DNA of 64,000 bases, from assembly GCF_015832195.1 (NCBI RefSeq), contig NC_052017.1, forward strand, positions 104,066,429 to 104,130,428. The letters are read 5' to 3'. Origin of the DNA: Motacilla alba alba (Eukaryota > Chordata > Aves > Passeriformes > Motacillidae). Under the pieces are notes generated by a model. The model was not told where the DNA came from. It saw nothing but the letters and a program-made list of their open reading frames with translations, and searched no databases. The translations under genes and the position numbers were made by a program. Positions 5,230-51,724 of the stretch are shown here, in pieces; the first letter of the stretch is position 1; every line of letters begins with the position of its first letter.

Positions 5230-19198
<13,969 letters not shown>

Positions 19199-26200: not shown

Positions 26201-27234
26201 TTTGGTTGATTGAACATTTCCTTTCAGATGGGCAAATTTTATCTCTGACCCCTCGTCTTGAGCTTGGAGAAGAAAAGCTGCAGTAATTTCCCACTATTGT
26301 TCACAATGGACTCCTGAGCTACTTAAAAAAAAAAAAATCCAACGAGAGAGAGAAACTTGTATAAAACCTGTGGGCCCAGTCCTGCGCAGCAATTTGGCTG
26401 CCCCAAAGTCAGAGTACCAATGACATCATGAAGACAGCATGGAGCATGGATCTCTAGGCTGAGGCTTGTCTGGTGGTCCTGGGATGCAGCTAGCCACCTT
26501 TCAGACAGCCCACATGTGGGTGAGTGCTGGACCTTGGCCTTTGAGAAAGGCAGGAACTGTCAGTTGGATCTGCCTTCCCAGGTCACTGAGCTGCCACATC
26601 TCAGACACATGGCCAGGGGGGCAGGAGGTTTTTGTTAGGCAGTTTGGACAGGACACAGCTTCTGTGACTGTTCCACAAGCACTGCCCAGTGAGCACATTC
26701 ACAAGTTCCCTACGGTTCTCATTGCTCCCTTCTTGTACCTTGGTGTAGGTTCCAGACATCACTGGTTTGCAGCAGTGCCCTTTCAGCCGTAGACGATAGA
26801 ATGAGCACTTCCTTCTTGGCCATTCCAGTCTGTTTCACTGACACTTCAAATATGTCAAAACCTTTTAAGCATTCAGCCAAACATCCACAAAACCTCTGAC
26901 TTGGTGATATAATGCCTTTCCTCCTTCAATCTACCTTTGCTATTGTTTCTCACAGAAATAATTTCTCACAGAAATGTCTCATTTGTTGGTTTGGTTTTTT
27001 TTTTTTTGGTTATTCACTTAGAATCTAGGAAGTATATACTCAGTTATTTTAAGCTTCTTTAGGAACAAACCATTATGCTTAGCCAGCCTAAGACTGGAGC
27101 CTGCGTGTCACCTGGTTTGTTGTAAGATACTGAAAACCCTACCTGTCATCCTGGGTGAAATGTGCATAGTACAACCTGCCTAGATATATAAATGTCCTCA
27201 GGCACTGTAGTACCTGATTCATCACATCCAAGAG

Positions 27235-27335
27235 AAGTGGGATAGGATGTTGTTCCCACAATGCAGGTGGGAACAGCAGAGGAGCTGAGACACAGGCAAG
27301 GAAAATGACTTAGCCAGAATCACACAAAGGAGTTC
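27235..27335 (+). repeat. MIR-like SINE fragment
   Basis: Shows the characteristic MIR order: ggaacagcagaggagctgag, acacaggcaaggaaaatgac, then ttagccagaatcacacaaag, paralleling the classic gaaactgaggc / gacttgcccaaggtcacaca segment. Better supported than the fragment near 26.1 kb but still a by-eye call. Confidence 0.5.
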
Positions 27336-28700
27336 ACACAAAACTGTTCCAGACATCGGTCACTCGTACCTCAAGCAAGTATCCTAAGGAGGGGAGAACT
27401 CACAGAACTGGAATCATTGTCTCTTAACTCTCAAGACTGTTTATTCCATGCTGCTGAAGAAAATGATGGTTGGCACAAGGCTTATGCTCTGTCTGTCCTT
27501 TCTATGACACTCTGCAGTTTGCTGAAGAAGATTGGCATGTGGTTTACCCTGGCAAAACCCTTTGCTCAGAATAAATGTTGACACTGAGTACTGGTATGTG
27601 GGACTGGAAAAAAACAATTCTGGTATAGCCTTGAGTCTTGGGGACTTGAAACAGCTGGAGCACAACTGCCATTACCTCACTGCCAGAAACAGAATGCCTT
27701 ATGAGGAAATGAGAACTTGAACGTGACTGCAAGTACCAAAACTCAGGGAGGTGCAGCAGTGGCTGGAAAGAGATGGTATGTAAAGGCTGCATAATTTGAA
27801 GAAAAATTTCCCTCACAGGATAAGGGGATCTGATGGCCTCTGTCCCCTCAATAGTGTTTTGGACTGCCAGTACAGGGTGGCTGTTTTCTTCCAGTGTGGA
27901 GTGGGAGGTGATACAAAATAACTTTCATCTTGAAAGCCCTCTGTGATTATTATTTTTTTTTTTTTGAGGAAGGAGTAAGCACCTGGAAACAGGAAGTATA
28001 AGATAAAACATGGCCACTCAACTAAACTGACAGTGGCCACCCAGGTCTGGGCACAAAATTAATGGCTCCATGCTGGTACTTCAAATTCACAGACTGTCTG
28101 AAAAGGTCAATTCTCAAAGTACCAGCTGAGGAAATGGCCCACAGTCCTTCTGTTATAGGCATTTGGATGTAATGAGGCAGTAAATTCGGCTATGCTTGGC
28201 ACTCATATGTGCTGTCAAAGCTTTCTTTATTCATGTGGTCAATAGAGACATGGGAGAAATTGTCAACAACTTTGAAGGCTTCTTCAGAGAGATTACCAGC
28301 AACAGGCAACTCTGCTGTAAGACACATTTTAGGCTGCTGTTGAGAAAAGGATAGTAACAAACATGTAAGTTGTGAATTTTCACAAAATAGTTCCATTTGC
28401 ATTCTTAGAAATTGGGAACACGTGTGGTTCTCAGACAAGCCAGTGTGAAAGTGACCAGTCAGAATTCCAGGGGGAGTGTTTGATGCAAGTTGCACATTTC
28501 TGCACCTTCTCTTTTTTTGTAATTTTTAACCAATATGAATTGTTTTGGTTTTTTTTTCCCCAGTATCAGTGACTTTTCCCCTTGCTGTGTTATTGACAGT
28601 GCACTCTTTTAAACCATAGGGAACAAAATATCATTTAACAAAAACTGTGAGTATCAAACCACTGTGGGTGACACTGAGGGCTCTACATTTTTTTGCTCAG

Positions 28701-28781
28701 TGGATTGGACCAGAGAAGGGCATTGATCACTTGGCTATAGCTGCTGTATGGAAAGCTCTGTGGGCCAAACAAGAGGGAAAG
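28701..28781 (+). pseudogene. ENOSF1: ENOSF1 exon remnant A (WIGPEKG block)
   Basis: 81 nt, phase 0, bounded by acceptor tttttgctcag and donor gtgatg, so both splice sites survive. The open frame reads WIGPEKGIDHLAIAAV then WKALWAKQEGK. Compared with the family (IGPEKGVVHLATAAVLNAVW then DLWAKQEGK) it lacks three residues between AAV and LWAKQEGK, an in-frame 9-bp deletion inside a buried helix of the capping/barrel region. Confidence 0.88.
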
Positions 28782-31700
28782 GTGATGCCCATGGGACCTC
28801 AATGTAAGAATGCTCATTAACTCAGAGAGGTCCTGGTTGCCCTCATTTCCATGTGGTCTTGATTTTGAAATAATCTATACGTATGACTGGCTTTAAAATA
28901 TCAAGTAAGATACAGTCATTGCTGAGTTCTTGGAGACTCTGCCCATGCTTAATTTTTGTAGGATGGAAAATTGTAGCCACTGCACAGTGCTTAGTGGTGG
29001 AATTGGTCGGAACATTGCAGAGCAATTTTGTGGAACTCCGGCATTTCTGAAAGAAAATATTTTTGCTGAGTCCTGTTTCTTTATATGCCTTTCTCTTGAT
29101 TTCATCTTTCTTACTCACATATTTTAATCTGAGATTTTCACCTTTTCGCTGCATCTCTGCTAAATATACTGTTGATCTGGGAGCCAAGTCTTTCATACTT
29201 AACATGTTGCTATTTATTAAAAATAGCCTTTTTAGGCAGAGATGAGCCATAAAAACAGCCTGGTTAGAAAGGAAAATTAGTGAACAAAAGATACGTCTGC
29301 TCAAAAAAAGACTGACATAGAAAGAGCTGCCTGGAACTGCGAGCCTGGGGTCCAGCCCTGTGAACTAGTGAAAAACATCCTTGAAAAGGGCAGCTGGCCT
29401 CTTTGAAGTGCAGCTGAGGTACCTAGAAACCAGAAACATCCACAGATACCGCTGATAAGCACCAAACAGGGAGACTGTAACAACAATTTGTCACGTGAAG
29501 GTAGAAAACAGTCTGAAAAAAATAATAGCTCTAAAGGAACAGATAACAGGATCCCTGGTTGTCTGTGAAAAATAGAAATTAAACAGGATCTATTTGCTGC
29601 TTAATGTCCCTCTTCCTCTTCAGATTATGTGCTATTAAAACACCTTATGTTTATCCAAAAATGAGCCTGAGAACTTCTTGGTTGAATCTCACACAACCTT
29701 TCTATAAGCATTTGGGGTCTCCCCAGGGTCACCTGGCCAAAAAGAAGTCTGTGATATGGATCACTTTGAAAATGGGACTCTATGAGTTCTCTTACTGTCT
29801 GTCTCCTCCTCTGTTTCAGGAAGGGTTGGTCCCCCAGGCTGTTCCCACCTTTTGAGATGGTTTTGCTGCTTTTGAAATCTGGCTCATTCACTTCATGTCA
29901 ATAGCATTGATATTAATATAAATAATCATAAAAATATCTGCTGTTATATCATTGATAAATTTGCTTCATTTGTGATAAACAGTAATCTAAAATAGTATAT
30001 AACTGCTTGGCTGCTGCTGTCATTGGTTATACCACAGTATTGATTCATGTCATTATTAAATGATACTAAGCTCTTGTCTGATAATTATATTATTGATGGC
30101 AGATACTAATTTGTAATAACTTGATATATATTCATTAATATTCATTTTATTAACCATAATATGTTTTCCAGTGGCAATTTTTGTCATATTTGTGGTAATC
30201 TGTAATAAAGGAAAGAAATTTAGTGGGCAAAGCTTTCATGTCCTCATGAATTACAGACTCCCACAAACGCACAGTCATTATCTCTCCACACCTTTTTTAA
30301 TAATCACTCTTCCAATACTGCTTCCATAATGAAACCAGGTTAAGAAGGGTACTGAATCCTTAATGATTTTCAGGAGAAAGTGTCAAATGTTCTTGCTTGG
30401 TGTTGAGAACCACTTTGCTTTGATGTCAGGAATTAACTTTGCGTGCCAAATGTAAATGTTACTTGCATTTTGTGTCATTTCATCGTGAAGAAAAAAGCTT
30501 CTGTGTGTTATGGCATCACTGTGGCTCCAGTTATTTCATGTGTTTTGTTTTCTAGTTTATGTGAAAGTTAGAGGTCAACGTGGTCAGAGAGTCTAAAAGA
30601 ACCGGGTCCTCTTAGAAGAGTACATGTTTTACCTGGTGTCCAAACTAAAATGGCCTTACAGCTCATGTCAGACAGAAGCTGTGTCATTGGCAGCGAGTGC
30701 TGCTTTCTGCCCAGAGAAGTCCTTTCCCTCCCAACATGCCCTCTTCCAGTCTGTTCTTGAGCAGAGATGCAAACTAGCCCCTCTCCTGGGGAAGCTCTAC
30801 AGCTTGTCTTTGCCCTCTCTTGCGTCACAGCCGGCAGCGGGGACTGATGTCTGCAGCTCAGGAAGCTGTGTACTTAAAGAATGTGCTTTAATCTGTAGGT
30901 CTTTGTTTAGGGTTTGGACAAGAAGCTGCTTTCCTTTAAGTCTGGATAATTGGGAGTTTGTTTTCGTTGTTTTAATGGCTGGGGGCTTTTTCAGAAGAAC
31001 AACTCCTTACTGAAAACTACAAACTTGGTAATTTAATTGCCTGTGCTACCATGTGCTGCTAGTAAATGTGTTCATGTTGATCTGTTTGCTGAAGAGATCA
31101 GTCATGTTGGGGGGGAGCTCCCTTCAGTATTAAGATCTAAAAGATCCTCTTCTAAAATAACTAGGGATTTCCTTTTCTGAGAGCAGGAGGTATGAGAATA
31201 GGGGTGCTTCTCTGTTTTAATTTGGCAGCTAAAATAGTATGACTTGGCTTTCCCATTTAATCTTTTACTCCTGCTTGGAAAGAGTTTAAAAAGAAGCTGA
31301 AAAGGGCTTATTATCAACTACTCACAGCCATGAAATTAGGCACACACACATTTGGCACTGCAACACAAGCTGATGAGGGAGGGGGGGTGTGAAGGTTTAG
31401 AATATCTGCTGTTTCAACTCCCTGCTTGCTTCAGAAAAATGGGGAAAAGATTGACAGCCAGTCCTCAACTGACTAGCATTACTTAATCTTTTTTTCATCA
31501 TACTGTTTTTTCATGCTATGGGGTTTTTTTTATTATTCTATACATCATGCTTGAAGGAGGCTGCCAGCATTTGCTATTCTGCATGGAATACAGATAGATT
31601 ACTGGTGTGCTACCAAAGGAGAAAGCTTGTGGTAAGTCATCTTTCCTTCAAAGCTGGAGTTTTGGTACCCTCCATTTTCCTAACCCTGGACTTGTCTCAT

Positions 31701-31850
31701 CAGTTTTGATGGGGGTAATTCTGTCAGGAACACACCATCAGCCTGTGAGACTGACGGGCTGGAGAAACAATGGGAATGATGAAGTCTGGAGTGTGAGGAG
31801 AACTCGATCCGGTTCAGTGTCATTTGATATTCACTCTTGTTCCCCTACAG

Positions 31851-31889
31851 AAATACTCCAAAATGGTCTGCTTGGGAAAAAAGAAAGAT
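31851..31889 (+). pseudogene. ENOSF1: ENOSF1 exon remnant B (EILQ-GKKER block)
   Basis: 39 nt after acceptor tcccctacag, ending at donor gtgagt. With a G from the preceding exon it reads EILQNGLLGKKER, matching family EILQKGQIGKKER. The final exon base is T; the family has Glu (GAA/GAG) next, which needs G. Joined to exon C, which begins AA, the split codon becomes TAA. Confidence 0.82.
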
Positions 31890-32347
31890 GTGAGTTTAAA
31901 TGCATCTGTACCTGATGAAAACAGTTTCTTTGCATCTCTTAGAGAGTGGGAAGGTGACTGTGTGAGATGCAGCCTGTTGTTTGCATCTTCTTGTGTGTCC
32001 CAGGAGAGCAATGTGAAACATCAGGTTTGTGCTACAGTGGTGATGTTTTGCCATGTAACTCTTTGCATTGGGTTAGCAAGGAGCTTGTGCTGATCTCAGC
32101 TTCTTCCAAGGATTTATCTGCTTTGCAGTTCTTTTGCAATAAAATAGCTAGGGAGAAGAGGGAAGGGCTTATTTGGCCAAATTGATCTATTTGATTGAAA
32201 TGTCAGGTTTTGGGAAAAAATAAAGAAGTAAAAACATCTCCAATCCTTCAGTTTTCCCAAATAACATTCTTTGATGCATTATTTAACAAAATAATATGCT
32301 GTTGACTGAAATACAGCCTGACTTGTAATTATTCTTATCTGCTTCAG

Positions 32348-32540
32348 AACAGACAATGTTAAAGTATGGATATCTGGCTTATTCAGGATCCTATTCCTGG
32401 CTATTTCTAGAACCTATCCTATTCCTATCCTATTCCTAGAACCAGACCAGCAGTTAAAACAGGTTTGAATGCTCAATTTTACAGCCATAAGATTTTAAAT
32501 AGTATGTGAAGTGGGAAATGCTAACAGATGACGATCGATT
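32348..32540 (+). pseudogene. ENOSF1: ENOSF1 exon remnant C (heavily decayed)
   Basis: After acceptor tctgcttcag the frame reads QTMLKYGYLAYSGSYSWL, matching family KQMLAQGYPAYTTSCAWLGY. A 29-bp tandem duplication (32415-32443, repeats of cctattcctat) then breaks the frame; past it QQLKQ aligns with DTLKQ. The continuation carries TGA at 32465-32467 and TAA at 32495-32497, yet still shows traces of the FKVKVGADLQDDMRR segment (gtgaagtggg, gctaacagatgacgatcga). The catalytic KxK lysines of this segment are lost. The 3' edge is approximate. Confidence 0.7.
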
Positions 32541-34728
32541 CTCACTGCTTGCTCCTAAACACTTACAAGTTTTGCTGGACTGACTGAAAATCTATCATTA
32601 CAAGTCCATTTAAGGAGGTAAAAAAGTGGGCTTAATAGCATTTCAGTGATTTTCTCAGTTAGGCAGAGTGTTTATGAATGAGGATATATCCATGGAACTA
32701 ACACAGAAATGGAAATTTCTTTGTTGGTATATTGTGTGTTACAGTGAGTTTGCATGGGTACAGCTGTTGTTGGTTTATGCAAGGGGCTTATGCACATAGG
32801 GATTCTCAGGGGAGTGCTACGAATTAACCAAAAAAATGATCATTAGGGGTGTTAATGAAAGGACATAAAATCTGTGCTTGGATAGATACATTGAGAAGCA
32901 CAGTAACCTTATCCTGTGGTAACTTCATGGATGAGAAATGGGGATGTCTTCTTCAGAGTCAACATGAACCTCAACATTTGATAAATGCTGGTTTAATCTA
33001 GAAATTCTGGTTGCCATCACTTTGAGGGATATTCTGGAACTGTCAGTAGCAGAGGCCCCTTGGCTTCCTTCATAAATAGCATCGCTATTGCCAGAGAGAG
33101 CTGCATGTGCTTGACTCCCTGTCTCAGTTCATTGGTGTCGGATCAAGTTAATATAGCCGGTATTTTTCCTTCATAAAATATACACCTTGGCATACCTAGA
33201 AATACTGTTACCAAGTTATGGGATGTTCATGCCTGGATTAGAAAAATGTATTATTTGTTACAGTTAGCTGGGATGAGGAGTTTCATTCAGCTGTATGTTA
33301 CTGATGTATCTGATCTCATTTTCTGATGGTTTCTTCTAGCTACTTGTGAGGAAGAACTAAAAAGCTTATTCTAATTACATGTAAATTAATATTATTCTAG
33401 ATGCAGTGTGGTGGAGTTATTTGGAGATGTATAATTAATTGATCTAACTTTGCTTGCAGTTGCACACACAGGCCTTGAGAGAAGGCTGGATAATGTACAG
33501 TAAACACCTGAATTGAGTGCTCTACTTCTGTGTTTTAAGCTTTGAAAGGACAAACTGGGCTTAGTCTAACTCTCGCAGGTCTGTGACATGGGCAGGGATG
33601 ACTTTGCTCCTGTATCTCTCCCAGACACTCCCCCCTTCCACTACTGCATAATGCTGCATTGCAGGAAAACAGAAGTGGTGCAGCAAAGCTGAGGGCTGAT
33701 CACAAGTGAAGATTAACGTGCTTCCGTTGACTTCCAAAACACCATCGCCGCTTTATTTTCAGAGTAGGATGAAGCTTACTCACAAGGGAGGAGAAGTAAC
33801 AAGGGAGTTCTTTCTGTAAGACAGTCATGCTAAAATTGTAAAATCTACTTTATGGATTCCAGTTTATGGCCCCATTAATCATTCAGAAGGGATCTATTTC
33901 ATGTTCCAAGTATGCATATACATTCAAAGTAAAAGTGGGTGATTATCTACAGGATGATATTTACTGATTGAGATCTATAAAAGAAATGATTGGCCAGAAA
34001 AAATAACTGTGATTATCACTTTTGCTACTGTACCATGTTATTTTCTGTTTAAAACCATTAGGTGAAATATCTCTTATATGCATTGATTGACAAATACTGG
34101 CTTTTTTCTTCTTCAAATCCAGAATAATGATATAAACAAATGTTGATATATTTCAGCAAATAGCAGTATTGGATATGGCTGTAGTAAATTTATTACTAAG
34201 AATTTTAACCTGTATTTCTGTGCCAGAAATTTGAGTCTGCGGGGGAGCCCCACTACCAGGATTGTCTTCTAGAAGATTTCAAGTGGCTTTTATATCCAGA
34301 GAGGCTTCCAGAGTAAAGCCTGTTAATAATTTTTAACATATATTTGGCCAAAAATAAGCTGGAAAAGAAGTTAATAAACTAAAATATTTGAGTGAAAATG
34401 AAAAAGTAGATGGAAGTCACTCATTTTTATTTTGAAATGTTACTTTGCTGACTGCTGTGGGTCGGATTCTTTGCCCCATATGTTCACTGACACAGTACAG
34501 CTGCTGACCTACCCTGGGTGCTGCAGAGCAGCACAAAGCTTTCATGGGATGCCATAAATCATGGAATGCTGAACCAGGAACTCTGTCAATATAGAATAGC
34601 AAGGACCTGAAGAGCCTGCAGAGGAATTATGATGTAATTTTCAGATGATTCATTTTTTATAGGAAAAAAAATTCCCTTGTGTGGGAGAGAAATTCTGCTT
34701 CAAAAACTCATCTTATTTAAACTATTGC

Positions 34729-34730
<2 letters not shown>

Positions 34731-34795
<65 letters not shown>
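34731..34795 (+). repeat. Poly(T) homopolymer, 65 bases
   Basis: An uninterrupted run of T between ttgcac and gtcagg. Read on the - strand it is a poly(A) tract, but no retroelement body is recognisable next to it. Its length in the assembly may be inexact. Confidence 0.95.
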
Positions 34796-34796
<1 letters not shown>

Positions 34797-35144
34797 TCAG
34801 GAAGCTTTTCTGCTGAAAATTTCAGGCAGCCATGTCCATGTTATAGGGTGCTTTACTTAAATATATGCTGCCAAAGATATACTCATTCCCACAGAAGACT
34901 GCTCTACTTCCTACGGGTCCTGATCTGCTCAGTTTGAACCTAGTCTGGATATTGACATAGTCATTGCAACACTGTATAAGTATAGCCAAAAGTTCAGTAC
35001 AGACAGTACAGCAATTCCAGCTCTTCATTTGCTTTCTATTTCCTGAATTTCTACCACTTCATAAAATTTTTGCAGTTTGTCAGGAAAAAAAAAAAACTCT
35101 CTAGAAACCCTCACTGTATTTGATTCTTATTTTTCTTGTCCCAG

Positions 35145-35291
35145 ATGCTGAATGCAAAGCAAAAATGGGAAATAAAGGAAGTAATAGAGTGGGTCACTGA
35201 ACCAGCTGAGATTAAACCCTCATGTATTAAGGAGCCAACTTTCCCAGATGAGGATATACATATCCAGATGGGATATGCAACTATTTCAAAG
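35145..35291 (+). pseudogene. ENOSF1: ENOSF1 exon remnant D (metal-ligand exon)
   Basis: 147 nt after acceptor cttgtcccag, open for 49 codons: MLNAKQKWEIKEVIEWV through CIKEPTFPDED and GYATISK. It aligns with family MMDANQRWDVPEAVEW, WIEEPTSPDD and GHATISK. The Asp of DANQ, a Mg2+ ligand in the enolase superfamily, is Asn; the IEEP acidic pair has become IKEP; four extra residues sit before GYATISK. The base pair after the last codon is CT where GT is expected, so the donor is lost. Confidence 0.87.
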
Positions 35292-35899
35292 CTTGGAGGT
35301 TTAATATTTTATTTCAATAATACTACAGTGACTCCAGTACTGATGTAATGTTGATACTGTTCCTTCACATATTCAGAGTTCAGTTTGAACTAGTAATTCA
35401 GAATACTATTAAATGTATTTGCTACAGGATCTTAATACATATTCTGTACCTGTATTCCCTTAAGTTTAAATAAATAATTCCTTTCTTAAAAAACATGTAA
35501 AAAGACTGCAATGCTTGCATAAGGAAGGCAGCCAACATTTAGTATGAAACAGGAATGGACTTTTTTTTTTTTTAATGTGTGGTTTCCAGTGAAGTTGGAA
35601 GTTTGGTTCAGAATTTGTGTTCCCAGCATGCTATACTTAGCAGCACTGTTAAAACCCCAGATCTGCTGTATGTGTATTTCTTTACTGCTGCACACACCCT
35701 GTTATACAATTCTTTACATTGCTTGTGGACAAGAGAAAGCAAAAAAAACCAATAAAAAATTTCATAACCTGTGTTACATTTTCTATAAAACACATAGAAA
35801 ACAGTGTGCTGTTATTGCATCCTTTTGTGCTACTGAGTAACTCCAGTGGGAATTCAGAGAACCAGAAGCAAGTCTTGAATGTTTGTTATTTCCTTCCAG

Positions 35900-35941
35900 G
35901 CCTTAACAGTGCTAGGAATTGGTGGAGCAACCAGAGAACAT
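35900..35941 (+). pseudogene. ENOSF1: ENOSF1 exon remnant E (GIGxATxE block)
   Basis: 42 nt, phase 0, with intact acceptor ttccttccag and donor gtgagt. It reads ALTVLGIGGATREH against family ALVPLGIGIATGEQ. The metal-ligand Glu is kept but the preceding Gly is Arg. Confidence 0.85.
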
Positions 35942-36739
35942 GTGAGTATATGTATAAGTGCTTTGGGCTTTTTCCTAATTACTGTTTGATTAATGAATCT
36001 ACTGCATAACCATTGGAGCATGTGCCAAAACTCCTTTGTGTGAAGTTAAACACTAAAGCTGAAAATGACTTGATCTCTATTTCAGCTATTCCCTACCAAG
36101 GTTGCCTTCACCTTATCTCCCTGGTTCACTCTTCCCACACACAATTTCTGTGAACAACCTGTAAATATCTGGGGTTTTTTTCACTATTATTATAAAAGCA
36201 ATTGCTGAAATTTCATATTCCTACATCAGTGAGAAATATGAAAGAACGCATGCTGTGATTGTGATTGCCCGTACGAAGGGCAGAGAAGCAAGGTACGAAG
36301 ATGAAGTCCATGCTGCTCTGTGGAGCACACTGCAGCCCCATGAGACAGCCTGGACAACACCTGTGCAGAACACTGCAGGCTGGACAATGTGGTCTGGAGA
36401 GCCCTGAAGGGCTGATGAAGCTGATATCCCCTGTAGCCCAAGGGTGATTGCTCAGCTCCCATTTTCATTTTGCTCTGTGGGTTTGGTGCTTCAGCCCGTG
36501 TTTGGCTGAAGCTAAACACTGCACAGCAGTGCATGTGTGGACATGACTCTGCAGTGGCAATATGAAGGAGTGGGGTTTAGAGGGGAGAGGTTCCAGGCTC
36601 CTCTAATTGCACCAACTCTATTTGTGCTGCCCTAACTCAGCTGTAAATATCAACATTCCAGGAAATCATGCTGTTAGCAAGCTGCAAGTCATCCTCTCAG
36701 TGGTACCAGTGGCACTGCCAGGGGTGCAGGAGGGCTGAG

Positions 36740-37446
36740 GAGCCAGGAGCATGGCTGGCAGGGCAGGTCTGAGGGAACAGCCAGAACTGGGAAGGTTACC
36801 AGACAAGGTTATGATGCAAGACAGCTCTGAGGGCAATCTCAGTCCCAGTGACAGAGACCAGGGTCAGACAGAGCCCAGGGACTGCCAGCCTGTCCATGGT
36901 GATGAAGTCAGGCCCAGGTCAAGCAGGGCTCAGCCTGGTTCAGGGTTCAGGGTCCACACCAGTGAGGTCCATGGCTCTGCACAGCTGCCATCACACCCGG
37001 GGTAGCTCAGGCAGGGACTGAGGCCGTGTCCTGAGCTGAGATGGGTCCGAAGGTAGGGTTGATGGGGGAGGGATTTCAGTGAGGCTGGGCAGGGCCAGCA
37101 GGGCTGCTCCTGCCTTGAGCTCCCTCCAAGACAGATGTATCCTCTAACCCAACAGAGAAGTAAATGGGCGGTGATGGGATTCCTCTGAAGGGGAATTTAA
37201 TTGCTGTGGGGTGTAGGGGGAATTTCAGGGGACACAGAACCAGGGCAGGGACACGAAAATGGGAAAGGGACAAGGATTGTTGGAGCCAGGTGGAGGGCTC
37301 AGGCAGACCCTGCACAGCCCCAGAGCCCTGGCAGGCTTATGGGTGGGGGTCAAAGTGGGGATGCTCAGATGGCCCCTGAAGATCATCAAGTACCCCTTGT
37401 GAGGGGGTCAAGCAGACTCAGCGTTTGGGCAAGGCCTGTGCTGTGG
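36740..37446. repeat. GC-rich repeat-like block left of the solo LTR
   Basis: GC content rises sharply relative to surrounding AT-rich DNA, with phrases such as cagagcccagggactgccag and cacacccggggtagctcagg that look like avian LTR or ERV-derived sequence. Together with 38042-38480 it seems to form one unit split by the solo LTR. I cannot name the family. Confidence 0.4.
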
Positions 37447-37451
37447 GAGGG

Positions 37452-38036
37452 TGTGCTGGTTTTGGCTGGGCTAGAGTTCATTTTTTCACAGTGGCTAGGG
37501 AAGGGATATGTTTTGGATTTGTGCTAAACACAGGGTTGATAATATAGAACTGTTTTTGATATTGCTAATGCAAAGCCAAGGCCTTTTCTGCTTTTCATAC
37601 TGCCATGCTGGCAAGGAAGATGGGCGTGCCTGGGAGTTTCGGAGGAGACACGGCAGGGACAGGTGACCCAAACTGACCAAAGGGATATTCCAGACCGTGT
37701 GGTGTCATGCTCAGTGCATAAAGTGGGGGGAAGAAGGAGGGAGGAGAGTATTCGGAGTGGTGACAATTGTCTCTCCAAGTAATCGTTATGTGTCATGGGG
37801 CCCTGCTCTCCTGGAGATGGCTGAACACCTGCCTGCCCATGGGAAGCAGTGAATTCATTCATTCCTTGTTCTGTTTGTTTGTGTACACAGCTTTTGCTTT
37901 CCCCAATAAACTGTCTATATCTCAAACCATGAATTTTCCAGCTTTTTCCCTTCCAATCCCACCCCTGACCCCGATGGTGGGGAATGAGCGATCAGCTGCT
38001 TGGGGCTGGGTTGCTGGCTGAGGTTAAACCACAACA
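37452..38036 (+). mobile_element. Solo LTR of an endogenous retrovirus (ERVL-like)
   Basis: 585 bp beginning tgtgctggttttggctgg and ending ggttaaaccacaaca, with terminal TG...CA. It is flanked by a perfect 5-bp direct repeat gaggg (37447-37451 and 38037-38041). Internal hallmarks of a widespread bird LTR are present: ttttggatttgtgctaaaca, ccaaactgaccaaagggata, ggagatggctgaacacctgc and a ccaataaactgtct poly(A) region. No internal retroviral genes are adjacent, so it is a solo LTR left by recombination. The 5-bp duplication fits ERVL or ERV1 rather than ERVK. Confidence 0.9.
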
Positions 38037-38041
38037 GAGGG

Positions 38042-38480
38042 TCAGAGCCCAGAGTCAGGCCAGGTTTGTAGGGCACTGCAGGCCTGGCTCTGCACTGCTG
38101 GCCGAGAGCTTGAGGCAGCCTGAGATGCCTGGCAGGCAGGAAGCCACAGGGGCCAGCTGCTCCCAAGGATTGGGAGCTGTCGGGGAGCCCCATGGGGGCA
38201 GCAGGGCAGGGTCCTCCCAGCCAAGCTTGTCCCACCTCCAGGGGTGCCAGGGGGCAATGAGGTGGCCCCAGCTTCATCTCCCTGGGGACGGGGATGAGCA
38301 GAGGCCAGGAGTGAGGAGAACCATGGTCAGACATGGCCCCTGGTGTGTCCAGCCAGGATGGGGTGTTGTTCCATGGCCAGACACGTCCACAGCTGTAGCA
38401 CAGCTGGAGGCAGGTACACCTGCCATGCAACCCAGGTAGAAATAAAGGCCCATGGGCAGAAGGTGTGAGCCCCAGGTGAG
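38042..38480. repeat. GC-rich repeat-like block right of the solo LTR
   Basis: Continuation of the GC-rich character seen left of the solo LTR, with an aaataaaggcc motif near 38440 that could be a poly(A) signal of an older LTR. Open frames here on both strands are long only because of GC bias; no protein motif is recognised. Confidence 0.4.
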
Positions 38481-40135
38481 ACTGGTCATGGTGAGGTCTG
38501 TCAGTGCTCTGTCTGGCCTTAAGAGGAATTTGTCTGGTACATTTGTAGCTATTTTAAAAGGGTGAAACCTGTCCTTTCCCCCAAGGAAACGAATTGCAAG
38601 CATTTGTAGTAAGTCACTGCCATCAGCTATATTTAAATACTTTTTGCATGAAATATTTTTAATGAGTCCAAAGACCAGAACTAACTAGCCAGATATATCA
38701 TAAATAGCAAGGTGTCAGCAGGCAGGCCGATACCTTTCAGAATACCAGTCTCCAGATTAAAGTAAATAGGTTTTTATTGCACCCATCTTTTTGCCAAGTA
38801 TTGACACCAAATCTACAGAGCCAAGCAATGTGAATTAACAAATTCTTGGTTCTCTGCAGCAACTGGAAACAACAGTGATGACATTAGCATAATTTCTCTG
38901 CTGCCAGTTTCTCATGCCAAGCCCTGCTATAAAAAATTTTAATTTTACTTCTCACTCTCAGCTGTTGTCTACCAGTTGATAGGACACTTTATTTGCAGAG
39001 GGGGGATGTTTTATAATGACTATCTAGTAGGATGGGTTTGAATTACCCTTTAGTACAGCCTTGCTTTACAAATTAAAGGCCAGTCCTGAATTTTGGCTTT
39101 ACTGGATGTTTTATATAACCTTTCTCTTCTTTTCACCATAGCATCTGAGAACCACATAAGCATTTAATGCATTTATTCACAGAAGTCCCAAGTGAATAAG
39201 GGAAATACAATTATCTGTACTAGAAACACGGGAAATTACCAAGAGGCCTGAAATGACAGAACAACTTAGTCCAGCTCCAGACAGGAAATCTGCAGCACAG
39301 CTACAAATTGAATCCTGACTCTTATCCAAGTGTATCTCAGCTACAAGGCCATCTCTCATCTGGCTGGACTGGTCTCCAGGAGGAAGAATGATTTCCTACA
39401 GCAGAATCACTGCTATTTTCACTTTAGCTGCCTCAAAATGGGAATAGCTGCTCATTCACATCGGCGAGCACATCCCAAAGCTGTGCAGTCCCAGGCATGC
39501 TGAATCCTGTCCCCAGAGTGCCCCCAGTTCCTGGCTGTGCACACAGTTAGGCCACCAGAGGGGTGTAAGTTGGCTCCCAAAGGAGTCTACATGGTAAAAA
39601 GATTTTGAGGGAGTGTGTGAAGCAATTATCTGGGACAGCTTCCCAATTAGTTTGTGTGAGCATTACATAATATCTGAGACAATATATTTGCCTCACTACA
39701 AGCTCAGTGTGCCTTTGTGCACGTTAAGCCCATGTCTGTGGCCTGGAATGGAGCAGCCATTTTCACTTGGTATTTTCACTTCACTTTCACTTACAGGATT
39801 CAACATCCAGTAAATTGGCAGTAATTTCCAAACTCAGTCCAGTACAACTATGCCCTTTGGCACACACTGAGTTTTACTCAGTGTACCTCAGTTCATTGTG
39901 TCAGGTGTAGTGTTCTTGACATTACAAGTATAAGCTGATTTTTAATACTGGCAACATCCTTGAAGTTCATTAGAATTCTCATGTGATCTCTCATTTAAAT
40001 TTTAATTATTTGGATTGACAGAGACACACACAGGAGGGACACTGTACAAATGCTTTAGTATGAGTCGCCAGCAGCTCTTATAATATTTTTATTTGAGAGT
40101 CTCCAGGTCTTAACTTTCCATTTTCTCCCTTCCAT

Positions 40136-40261
40136 CGCCACAACAGAGTGATATTTAAACATCTTCTACAAGCCAGGGTCTTGAGTTGTCTCCAAATTGA
40201 CAGCTGCAGGCTGGGAAGTGTGAATGAAAGCTTGTCTGTGCTGCTGATGGCCAAAAAGTTC
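40136..40261 (+). pseudogene. ENOSF1: ENOSF1 exon remnant F (IDSCRLGSVNE block)
   Basis: 42 open codons, the same length as the family exon: RHNRVIFKHLLQ, LQIDSCRLGSVNE and LSVLLMAKKF. It is the best-conserved block. The acceptor dinucleotide immediately before it reads AT, not AG, the first Cys codon has become Arg, and no GT follows the last codon. A cryptic AG ten bases inside the block would lead straight to a TAA. Confidence 0.9.
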
Positions 40262-43200
40262 CAGAGAAAGGCTCTGCAAAATGCAGCAGCAATGAGAAAA
40301 TTTTTCTCTCCCCATCCTTCAAGGCAGTCTGATTAGTTTCTTCAGCTGTCATGACTGTGATTTCTGAGCATAAGCTTGCATGCACTGCTGTAATTTTTGT
40401 TTCATGTTATGCACCGAAAGGCTTTGCGTGTCCCTGTGTGGCAGTCATCTCTAGTTTGGATTTGGGGGCCTCTATCAGTTAGTCCAGCACTTGATCATGT
40501 TTGATCATATCAAAGTATCTGAAAGGCTTGAAAACATTTTAGTTATATAAAAAAATCCCAATAACAACTAACTGTGGTGATCAATCTTTTTTTTCCCTTT
40601 AAAAAACATGTTGCTACTTGGTGGCCACAGCATGTATCGGTGTTGTTTCCCCACAAGCTCCCCTTCCTGTGGGTTGCAAAGGGAAGTTAGAAGGGTGGGT
40701 TGAATTTCAAGCAGGTGGATGTGAACTGTTTGTGGTTTTAATAAAGTCACTTGAAACCTGGGCTGCATTCCACATTCAGACACTTCACAGGTGCCAGTCA
40801 CTATGGTGACAAACTCACCAAGTCAGGCTCATTAGAAGACTTGATTTTGATGGCTGATCAGATGGATGTGTCAAAAATTCTGCAGTTCTTTCTTTTCTGA
40901 CCCTTCATCTACCGTAATCAGATAACTAATATCCTTTGTGGTACTGCAGTAAGGCAAATTTTGCAACATACCATAACATGTCAGAAACAGTATGGGTCAC
41001 AAAATTCGTCTAACAAGGTGGAATGTAGTAGATATTTGATCAAAGTGGTAAGAAATTTCATTGCTATCTCTGAATTGTTGAATGGCCTTTGGAAAGCGGA
41101 GAAATGATACAAGGATACATCTCTTGAAAGTATCAAGCTATGTCCCATGTTTTATCTAAAATACTGCTCTGAATACAGCCTGCAGTCATAGTAGTCATCT
41201 TTGCAGAATGAGCAGTGTTCATATTCTGCAAATCAAAATTCCTTAAATACCTCCTGTTCAGCTCTATATATTAAAGTTCTTCGAATATTCATATTTTTTC
41301 ATGAAAGCTCCTAGAATTCTCATATCTACAAATTTTAAAATGTATTTTTATTTTTACTCACAATAAAGTCTGTTGTTGGAGTGGTTTTTACATCTTTCTG
41401 ATCTTTTGAGCACCATAAACCTTCTTGATCTTCAAGGTACAAGCTTCACTCCAGCTGCTATTGGTAGTAAATTGTGCTGATAAAGGGAAACAGTGAAGTT
41501 GTAATTAATACCTATACTAAAAACTAGGAACTCTTCCAGAGCTGTAGAGACTACTCTGCTTATGTATGCGATGTATGTCCATACACCTAACTCCTCTGCA
41601 ATTTATGAAGAGAAGTAAATGATTCCCATCTGAATTCTTCTCTTGGCTAGGTATTCCTGTCCTGGATAACCACTGAGACTGCTAATTCCCACTAGTAAAG
41701 CCCTGAGGCCAGCTTTATTTCACATCCTCTCTGGCTACACTTACTAAAATGTCCTGCAGAATCCACCTTATCTGCAGTGTTACATAAAGTGGATTCCAGC
41801 AAAAGGAACTTTACTTGCTAAGTGTAGGCAGAACTGTTAAGTGAATGTGCAGCTTAATCTGTTTCCTTGTACTTTAGAGGGCTGTAGGAACACTCAAGAA
41901 CCTTTAATTTATAAAAGTATGCACATGGTAAGGAGCGGCTGACAACCTACAGCTGGGACATACCATTAATGAAAAGATAACACCTGGACCATCAGAACTA
42001 GAATAGACTAGTCTGACTTCAGAATATCAGACCAGTAGAGCTGAGATGAAGTTTATTAGGAGGAGCATGTGACAAAGCTCTCAGGTGTGGCAACAAGAAC
42101 GCTGCTACTACCTGTGAGTTCAGTAACTTGAGAGAAGACCCAAATGTGTGTGTTCTACTGCAGGTTGGGTACTGAGCATCCATGTAATGCAGCCTCAGAA
42201 AAGGATAAAGTTTGACCATTCCATGTTTCTCACAGGATCTAAGCTGAAAGAGCTCAGTCTGATCACCTCTTTTATAAACAATTCACTACAGTGTATATTA
42301 AGAACCTTTCTAATAAGCAGTGGTCTCTTTACTTACTTTTGGTGTGCTTACAACAGGCAGAGATTTTTTTTTTTTTTTTGTGCAATCCTCTTGGGCTAAA
42401 TGTCAGGAAAGGAGAATAACTTTTCATGTTTCAAAAAAATTAGTCTCAATATCAGTGATCAGAATAAGGAAAACCAGCATAATGACATATGCAAATAATT
42501 TTTATACAAAGTATGATTTTCAAAGTTATGATCAGTTTGGTTTAAGAAAGATTCAATGGTCCTCTTATGCAGGACCCTGAATGAAGGCACACTGATTATT
42601 AAATTCTTACAGTTATCTGAAATTGTACACTTTTCCAATATTTACCAGTTTGTTGACTTTAAAATTTAACTCAAAAAATTACTATGCATTTTTCTACATG
42701 TTCAAATATGTATTGCCTATCCTATGAATATTAACCACATATCTATCCACAATTAAATTGCTGAAGAGGAATTTAATGTGTTACTGCAGAAGGTACAAGG
42801 ATAAGGAGACTTGAAAGCTGAATTCTGCTAGAATTCAATTAATGAACTCCATTCTTAAAAATACTATGATCTCTAGGTTTTACTGCTCCCGGCTGCAAAA
42901 TTAGTCCATGTGTTTGTGGGGTCTGGTTTTAAACGATGACAGACAGCTGATTAGTAAAATTATCTGGTAACCTCTGTTTAACTGCAACTCTCTTTGATTT
43001 ATATCAAATCAGTAATCTATGTAGGGTTGAGGAATAAAAAAAAAAATAAATTGCTGCTACAGAGACATCATGCAGAGATTGCAGTTCCAGCAAGGTTCCA
43101 TTAAAATCTTTTGCCTTCCTGATGGTTCATCTGTGAAGACTATGGGAAGTTTGTTTTTCCTTGCCAGATGTTACCCTTCAAGACATTTTGCTTTCCAACC

Positions 43201-43687: not shown

Positions 43688-51724
<8,037 letters not shown>

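What the first reader, a model, noticed from the sequence alone, without database searches (positions are those of the whole stretch)
28701..40261. ENOSF1 appears to be a unitary pseudogene in this bird
Six blocks matching ENOSF1 lie in order on the + strand exactly where the gene sits in other amniotes, between YES1 and TYMS. They carry independent inactivating changes (spliced stop, frameshifting duplication, lost splice sites, replaced metal ligands), and the N- and C-terminal exons are not detectable. Loss of a conserved sugar-acid dehydratase, also known as rTS, that in mammals is antisense to TYMS would be a notable lineage-specific event. Long open stretches in D and F suggest the loss is not extremely old.
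Basis: partly seen in the sequence, partly recalled or inferred. Interest (0 to 1): 0.88.

Follow-up and report, generated by a model that had tools for sequence, protein, structure and literature searches.

The report
Long-dead ENOSF1 gene in a bird
Next to its thymidylate synthase gene this bird carries the broken remains of ENOSF1, a sugar-acid dehydratase gene, and because predicted proteins of very different birds carry the same damage the gene was likely inactivated before the Neoaves (most living birds) diverged, possibly along with the enzyme that starts the breakdown of the sugar L-fucose.

Summary
On the + strand between a Src-family kinase (YES1 by position) and TYMS, twelve ENOSF1 exon relics, two of them weak, lie in order (26,550-40,535; best E 1e-15). 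Stops, lost splice sites and replaced metal ligands are real. No other copy was found in this genome.

Age and scope need correcting. The ten bird models found (flamingo, stork, penguin, vulture, gull, five songbirds) are short and share lesions wherever they cover the site: residues 122-124 missing, E276K at a metal ligand, a four-residue insertion, G304R, no H355 segment. The loss is therefore likely older than the Neoaves radiation. The open stretches are ordinary for this region, and sampled exon relics are no better conserved than intron. A 2011 paper already inferred that birds lost ENOSF1; the relic's anatomy and dating are the additions.

HSD17B14, first enzyme of the same L-fucose pathway, was also not found here, while BDH2 and fucose salvage genes were. 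Loss of oxidative L-fucose breakdown is the bolder reading.

The parts
18992..19198 (+). Last coding exon of a Src-family kinase, YES1 by position (upstream flank)
   Evidence: Open frame to stop; phmmer best hits Fyn and Src kinases, E 3e-38. The name YES1 is inferred from position; no call gave it.
26550..26609 (+). Probable relic of ENOSF1 exon 1 (about aa 9-28)
   Evidence: Score 59 with a stork/penguin query, 0 of 100 dinucleotide shuffles; turtle query best at the same place but 42 of 100. Moderate support.
28202..28312 (+). Exon relic A, human aa 65-101
Evidence: E 1.7e-7; E 6.8e-10 with turtle P0126.
28701..28781 (+). Exon relic B, aa 103-132, lacking residues 122-124
   Evidence: E 1.7e-7; the same gap in 8 of 8 bird models that cover it. 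Acceptor CTCAG kept.
31565..31627 (+). Exon relic C1, about aa 144-164, stop TAG at 31595
   Evidence: E 3.8 human, 4.4e-5 with Vidua, whose model has Tyr there.
31850..31888 (+). Exon relic C2, aa 166-178, acceptor CTACAG and donor GTGAGT present
   Evidence: E 0.57 human, 0.001 with Vidua; sites read.
32347..32403 (+). Exon relic C3, aa 179-197
   Evidence: E 0.57 human, 9.7e-5 with Pyrgilauda.
32413..32438 (+). Tandem array (period 11, 2.4 copies) inside exon relic C3, likely frameshifting
   Evidence: Tandem Repeats Finder.
33457..33498 (+). Exon relic C4, about aa 206-219 (weak)
   Evidence: E 6.6, no hit at E<=1; supported only by order and by the acceptor TTGCAG.
33923..34003 (+). Exon relic C5 with the KxK motif, aa 219-245, stop TGA at 33965
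   Evidence: E 0.006 human, 1.4e-4 crocodile.
35145..35291 (+). Exon relic D, aa 248-292: D250N, E276K, four-residue insertion, donor AAG|CT
   Evidence: E 2.8e-9, 3.5e-12 crocodile; codons, border.
35900..35941 (+). Exon relic E, aa 293-306, G304R, both splice sites present (TTCCAG, GTGAGT)
   Evidence: E 34 human, 0.06 with Vidua; sequence.
40136..40265 (+). Exon relic F, aa 307-350; AT instead of AG before it, GA instead of GT after it
   Evidence: E 1.1e-15; PDB 4a35 E 5.8e-16; borders.
40392..40535 (+). Exon relic G, about aa 350-382, stop TAG at 40452, acceptor apparently lost; a His codon at 40446 may be the old H355
   Evidence: E 1.6e-4 human; 40458-40535 E 1.2e-9 with Pyrgilauda; translation.
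43690..51724 (-). TYMS, convergent downstream neighbour (43690 approximate)
   Evidence: Exon translations; one exon matches human thymidylate synthase, E 7.6e-32.

Best explanation
The interval 26,550-40,535 holds the decayed exons of an ENOSF1 (L-fuconate dehydratase) gene that likely lost its enzyme function before the Neoaves radiated and has probably decayed without selection since. Shown: ordered exon relics with stops, missing splice sites and undetectable exons at the place between a Src-family kinase and TYMS; no second copy found in this genome; shared changes in ten other bird models. Inferred: the first blow probably hit the active site (metal ligand E276 to Lys, loss of the H355 segment), later stops and splice losses being lineage-specific; and relaxed need for L-fucose oxidation is the likely cause, because HSD17B14, the first enzyme of that route, is also not found here while BDH2 and the fucose salvage family are.
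For: Ordered relics. Stops. Own-genome searches with human and crocodile ENOSF1 return only this locus: 4 of 4 hits at E<=10 and 3 of 3 at E<=1 (each scored 5 candidates). Ten bird models of 240-338 aa against about 440 aa in most other vertebrates listed. Shared changes: residues 122-124 missing in 8 of 8 models covering them; E276K and the four-residue insertion in 9 of 10, the tenth (Cyanoderma) lacking that part; G304R in 7 of 7 covering it; H355 in 0 of 10. Neutral decay: window against stork and flamingo, exon pieces 206 of 263 residues identical (78%), intron read-through 57 of 68 (84%). Pathway: HSD17B14 gives five hits of 31-39% identity; the SDR gene beside MITF, where one chicken paper lists HSD17B14, is 27-45% identical; BDH2 gives six exon hits of 55-89% on one contig; PF07959 (FPGT/FCSK type, recalled) is found on two contigs.
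Against: The bird comparison rests on predicted proteins, not DNA; models can skip exons and cannot show stops, and the ten were seen among the best 120 rows of 1312. A second search, with a profile of eight of them, listed seven of the ten and no further bird in its best 120 of 1750. No Palaeognathae or Galloanserae were seen, so 'before Neoaves' is a minimum, not class-wide proof. Clusters at 90% identity hide members (crocodile is 90.5% identical to the Anolis representative), so a full-length bird protein could be hidden. Two shared indels are multiples of three and exon E keeps both splice sites, which would also fit a period as a translated, catalytically dead protein. The exon/intron comparison is small and hand-picked: A (flamingo only), B, D and F against two intron pieces, all from local alignments; C1-C5, E and G were not counted. 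A chicken transcriptome paper names ENOSF1 as a target gene (PMC12586055).
Confidence: 0.86

Rival explanations
1. The gene first became a catalytically dead but still translated protein in early birds and was silenced later, separately in each lineage (shares its first step with the best explanation).
For: The shared indels are multiples of three and E276K is a missense change. The window's stop at 31,595 is Tyr in the Vidua model and the one at 33,965 is Arg in the Vidua and Pyrgilauda models, though models seldom include stops. Exon E keeps both splice sites.
Against: All ten bird models lack the H355 segment and aa 383-440; sampled exon relics are no better conserved than intron read-through.
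Confidence: 0.25
2. The relic is still transcribed as a non-coding antisense RNA that acts on TYMS.
For: Human ENOSF1 was found as a source of antisense RNA to TYMS (PMC13406643 section 3.3); some splice sites survive.
Against: The last exons, nearest TYMS, are not detectable and no excess conservation is seen. No expression data here.
Confidence: 0.08
3. A recent loss confined to this bird's lineage.
For: Some lesions are not in the songbird models that cover the site: TAG 31,595 and TGA 33,965.
Against: Active-site and structural changes are shared by birds of six orders (stork and penguin orders recalled).
Confidence: 0.04
4. Assembly error or misplaced copy.
For: None found.
Against: Models from other bird genomes show the same changes and no second copy was found in the assembly.
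Confidence: 0.01

Closest known systems
Loss of ENOSF1 in birds (PMC3197473, 2011; PMC1261261, 2005)
   Same: 2011: no chicken or zebra finch homologue, birds apparently lost the gene after the split from reptiles (passages and section 5). 2005: no chicken sequence found, perhaps for want of data (passages).
   Different: In the passages seen both rest on absence from databases. Here the decayed gene is seen in place, its lesions listed, and shared lesions give a minimum age.
ENOSF1 decay in rodents (PMC3197473)
   Same: The same gene reported as lost or being lost in another clade (section 5).
   Different: Independent lineage; not examined here.
Human ENOSF1 / bacterial L-fuconate dehydratase (PDB 4a35, 1yey)
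   Same: Homologous, exon by exon.
   Different: Two of the three metal ligands replaced, catalytic His exon broken, both ends missing or nearly so.

Membership tests
Unitary pseudogene | Relic in the syntenic place of the functional orthologue | tested here: met
   Between a Src-family kinase and TYMS. That the TYMS-rTS pair is conserved in other vertebrates is stated in PMC1261261.
Unitary pseudogene | No functional copy elsewhere in the genome | tested here: met
   None found with human or crocodile ENOSF1. Of four MR_MLE_C hits, one is relic F, two read as glycolytic enolases, one is weak. Assembly gaps cannot be excluded.
Unitary pseudogene | Disabling lesions in the coding or splice sequence | tested here: met
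   Three stops, missing splice sites, undetectable exons.
Unitary pseudogene | No functional transcript | not testable with these tools
   No RNA data.
Unitary pseudogene | Introns present (not a retrocopy) | tested here: met
   Relics spread over 14 kb with splice sites at several borders.
L-fuconate dehydratase (ENOSF1), functional | Three metal ligands D250, E276, E305 (numbering; roles recalled) | tested here: not met
   D250N, E276K; E305 kept.
L-fuconate dehydratase (ENOSF1), functional | Catalytic Lys of KxK and His355 (roles recalled) | tested here: not met
   KxK kept in relic C5. A His codon that may be H355 remains at 40,446, but its exon has no evident acceptor and a stop two codons later.

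The most novel reading that the evidence does not exclude
Birds dismantled oxidative L-fucose catabolism: HSD17B14 (entry step) and ENOSF1 (dehydratase step) were both lost by the neoavian ancestor, leaving only salvage of L-fucose into GDP-fucose.
Probability: 0.5. Interest if true: 0.6.

Novelty: new member of a known kind. Interest (0 to 1): 0.42.

Why it matters
The physiological role of mammalian L-fucose breakdown is called largely enigmatic (PMC13406643, abstract). A large clade that appears to live without its two molecularly characterised enzymes, while keeping salvage, would be a natural knockout that makes the question testable by labelled-fucose feeding. It also turns a 2011 inference from absence into a physical, datable relic, and shows that automatic annotation names this relic ENOSF1 in eight of the ten bird models seen, four of them without a low-quality mark.

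Tried and rejected
A shared +1 frameshift at the donor of exon F in all Neoaves looked likely from the read-through residues of the bird models. Rejected, because guinea-pig and bat isoforms (P0158, P0029) indicate that the exon ends with the first base of codon 350, so CAGA|GTAAGG is the ancestral donor.

Retention of exon F under selection was considered (42 of 42 residues as in turtle in the stork and penguin models). Not supported, because intron read-through is about as conserved; that test is small.

The chicken 'HSD17B14' beside MITF (PMC12747192, passages) contradicts the table in PMC7064643 that lists none in chicken (passages). In this genome the gene at that place is 27-45% identical to human HSD17B14 and 21-45% to BDH2, so it is probably a different SDR. 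Absence of HSD17B14 by search could still be an assembly gap.

(a pattern search) served only to learn what genome is held. The repeat finder at the tandem array found nothing; Tandem Repeats Finder did. Paper searches for a described ENOSF1 loss or relic in birds. One search matched 1,211 papers on two of three terms and listed 30, none with ENOSF1. The main text of the 2014 paper on genes missing in birds (PMC4290089) mentions neither ENOSF1, TYMS, YES1 nor HSD17B14; supplements could not be read. HSD17B14 in birds. PMC9559480 was looked at and held only a reference. No structure prediction was run.

Full report
What is there. The window lies at C2:104,066,429-104,130,428 of a 1.07 Gb genome in 618 contigs. 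A Src-family kinase ends at 19,198 on the + strand and TYMS runs on the - strand from 51,724 to about 43,690. Between them, human ENOSF1 gives eight ordered + strand hits with E<1; a ninth hit with E<1 is out of order. Ten further queries (crocodile, two turtles, lizard and six bird models) raise the support of most weak ones and extend the relic. Relic C4 remains weak (E 6.6), held only by order and an acceptor. A probable exon-1 relic at 26,550 is found with a bird-derived query (0 of 100 shuffles); a turtle query has its best match at the same place but without significance (42 of 100). Exon 2, a small PLWKLLVDM exon and aa 383-440 are not detectable.

State of the gene. Stops at 31,595, 33,965 and 40,452; an 11-base tandem array in C3; no donor at D, no acceptor or donor at F, no evident acceptor at G; D250N and E276K; G304R; residues 122-124 missing; four residues inserted in D. 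Exon borders are inferred from other vertebrates' isoforms and the bird models. Exon E, by contrast, is intact with both splice sites. No other ENOSF1 copy was found in the genome with human or crocodile queries. Of four MR_MLE_C family hits, one is relic F; two (C1, C21) look like glycolytic enolases by reading their translations; the fourth is a weak hit (E 1.4) with no clear ENOSF1 match.

Other birds. A query joined from the window's blocks found ten bird models among the best 120 of 1312 hits: Pyrgilauda, Vidua, Melozone, Coccothraustes, Cyanoderma, Ciconia, Phoenicopterus, Larus, Sarcoramphus and Spheniscus. All are 240-338 aa, four are marked low quality and two (Coccothraustes, Cyanoderma) are unnamed. 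A profile of eight of the ten listed seven of the ten and no new bird. On the alignment of all ten with one crocodile and two turtle proteins, residues 122-124 are missing in 8 of 8 models that cover them, E276K and the insertion are in 9 of 10, G304R in 7 of 7 covering it, and H355 in none. D250 is kept in the five non-songbirds and is Asn in three songbird models and in the window; Vidua's model is built differently there and Cyanoderma's lacks the site. Flamingo, gull, vulture and snowfinch were checked as Neoaves in the taxonomy; the placement of stork and penguin is recalled. The simplest account is one early active-site loss followed by lineage-specific decay. The window bird is probably a songbird, since its changes match those of the songbird models; no call named the species.

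Age clues. In 19,301-43,600 there are 26 + strand stop-to-stop stretches of at least 74 codons, the two in question among them, and 31 on the - strand, so two such stretches say little. Pieces of exon relics A, B, D and F are 78% identical (206 of 263) to stork and flamingo (A to flamingo only); two pieces of intron read-through are 84% identical (57 of 68). No selection on the exons is seen in this small, hand-picked sample.

Pathway. HSD17B14 and ENOSF1 are the only two molecularly characterised enzymes of mammalian L-fucose breakdown; BDH2 is a candidate third (PMC13406643, passages and section 3.3; PMC11293516, passages). In this genome HSD17B14 yields only five hits of 31-39%, BDH2 yields six exon hits of 55-89% on one contig, and the PF07959 family, to which the salvage enzymes belong (recalled), is present on two contigs. 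One table lists no HSD17B14 in chicken and another paper lists one beside MITF; the gene at that place here is too divergent. Co-loss is thus plausible, not proven, and was tested in this one genome only.

Known before. PMC1261261 (passages and abstract) found no rTS in chicken but noted that data may have been insufficient. PMC3197473 (passages and section 5) found none in chicken or zebra finch and stated that birds apparently lost it. PMC12586055 (passage) names ENOSF1 in chicken as a microRNA target, so an annotation of that name is in use. The six searches named under Tried and rejected returned no description of the relic in what they listed.

Verdict. Real, more complete than described, old rather than recent, and in outline already known. 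The additions are the physical relic, a minimum age from shared lesions, and the lead on pathway loss.

Noticed in passing
G000:C12:4614259-4631190 (loci L028-L030): An SDR-family gene near MITF, 27-45% identical to human HSD17B14 and 21-45% to BDH2; a chicken paper lists the gene at this place as HSD17B14, probably a wrong symbol.
   Followed up: partly
window 37452-38036: A stretch that looks like a solo LTR of an avian endogenous retrovirus (recognised from memory, no call) between relics E and F.
   Followed up: no
window 34731-34795: An uninterrupted run of 65 T between relics C5 and D.
   Followed up: no
P0121, P0122, P0124, P0140: Public bird annotation carries ENOSF1 relics as ordinary protein-coding genes without a low-quality mark.
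   Followed up: yes
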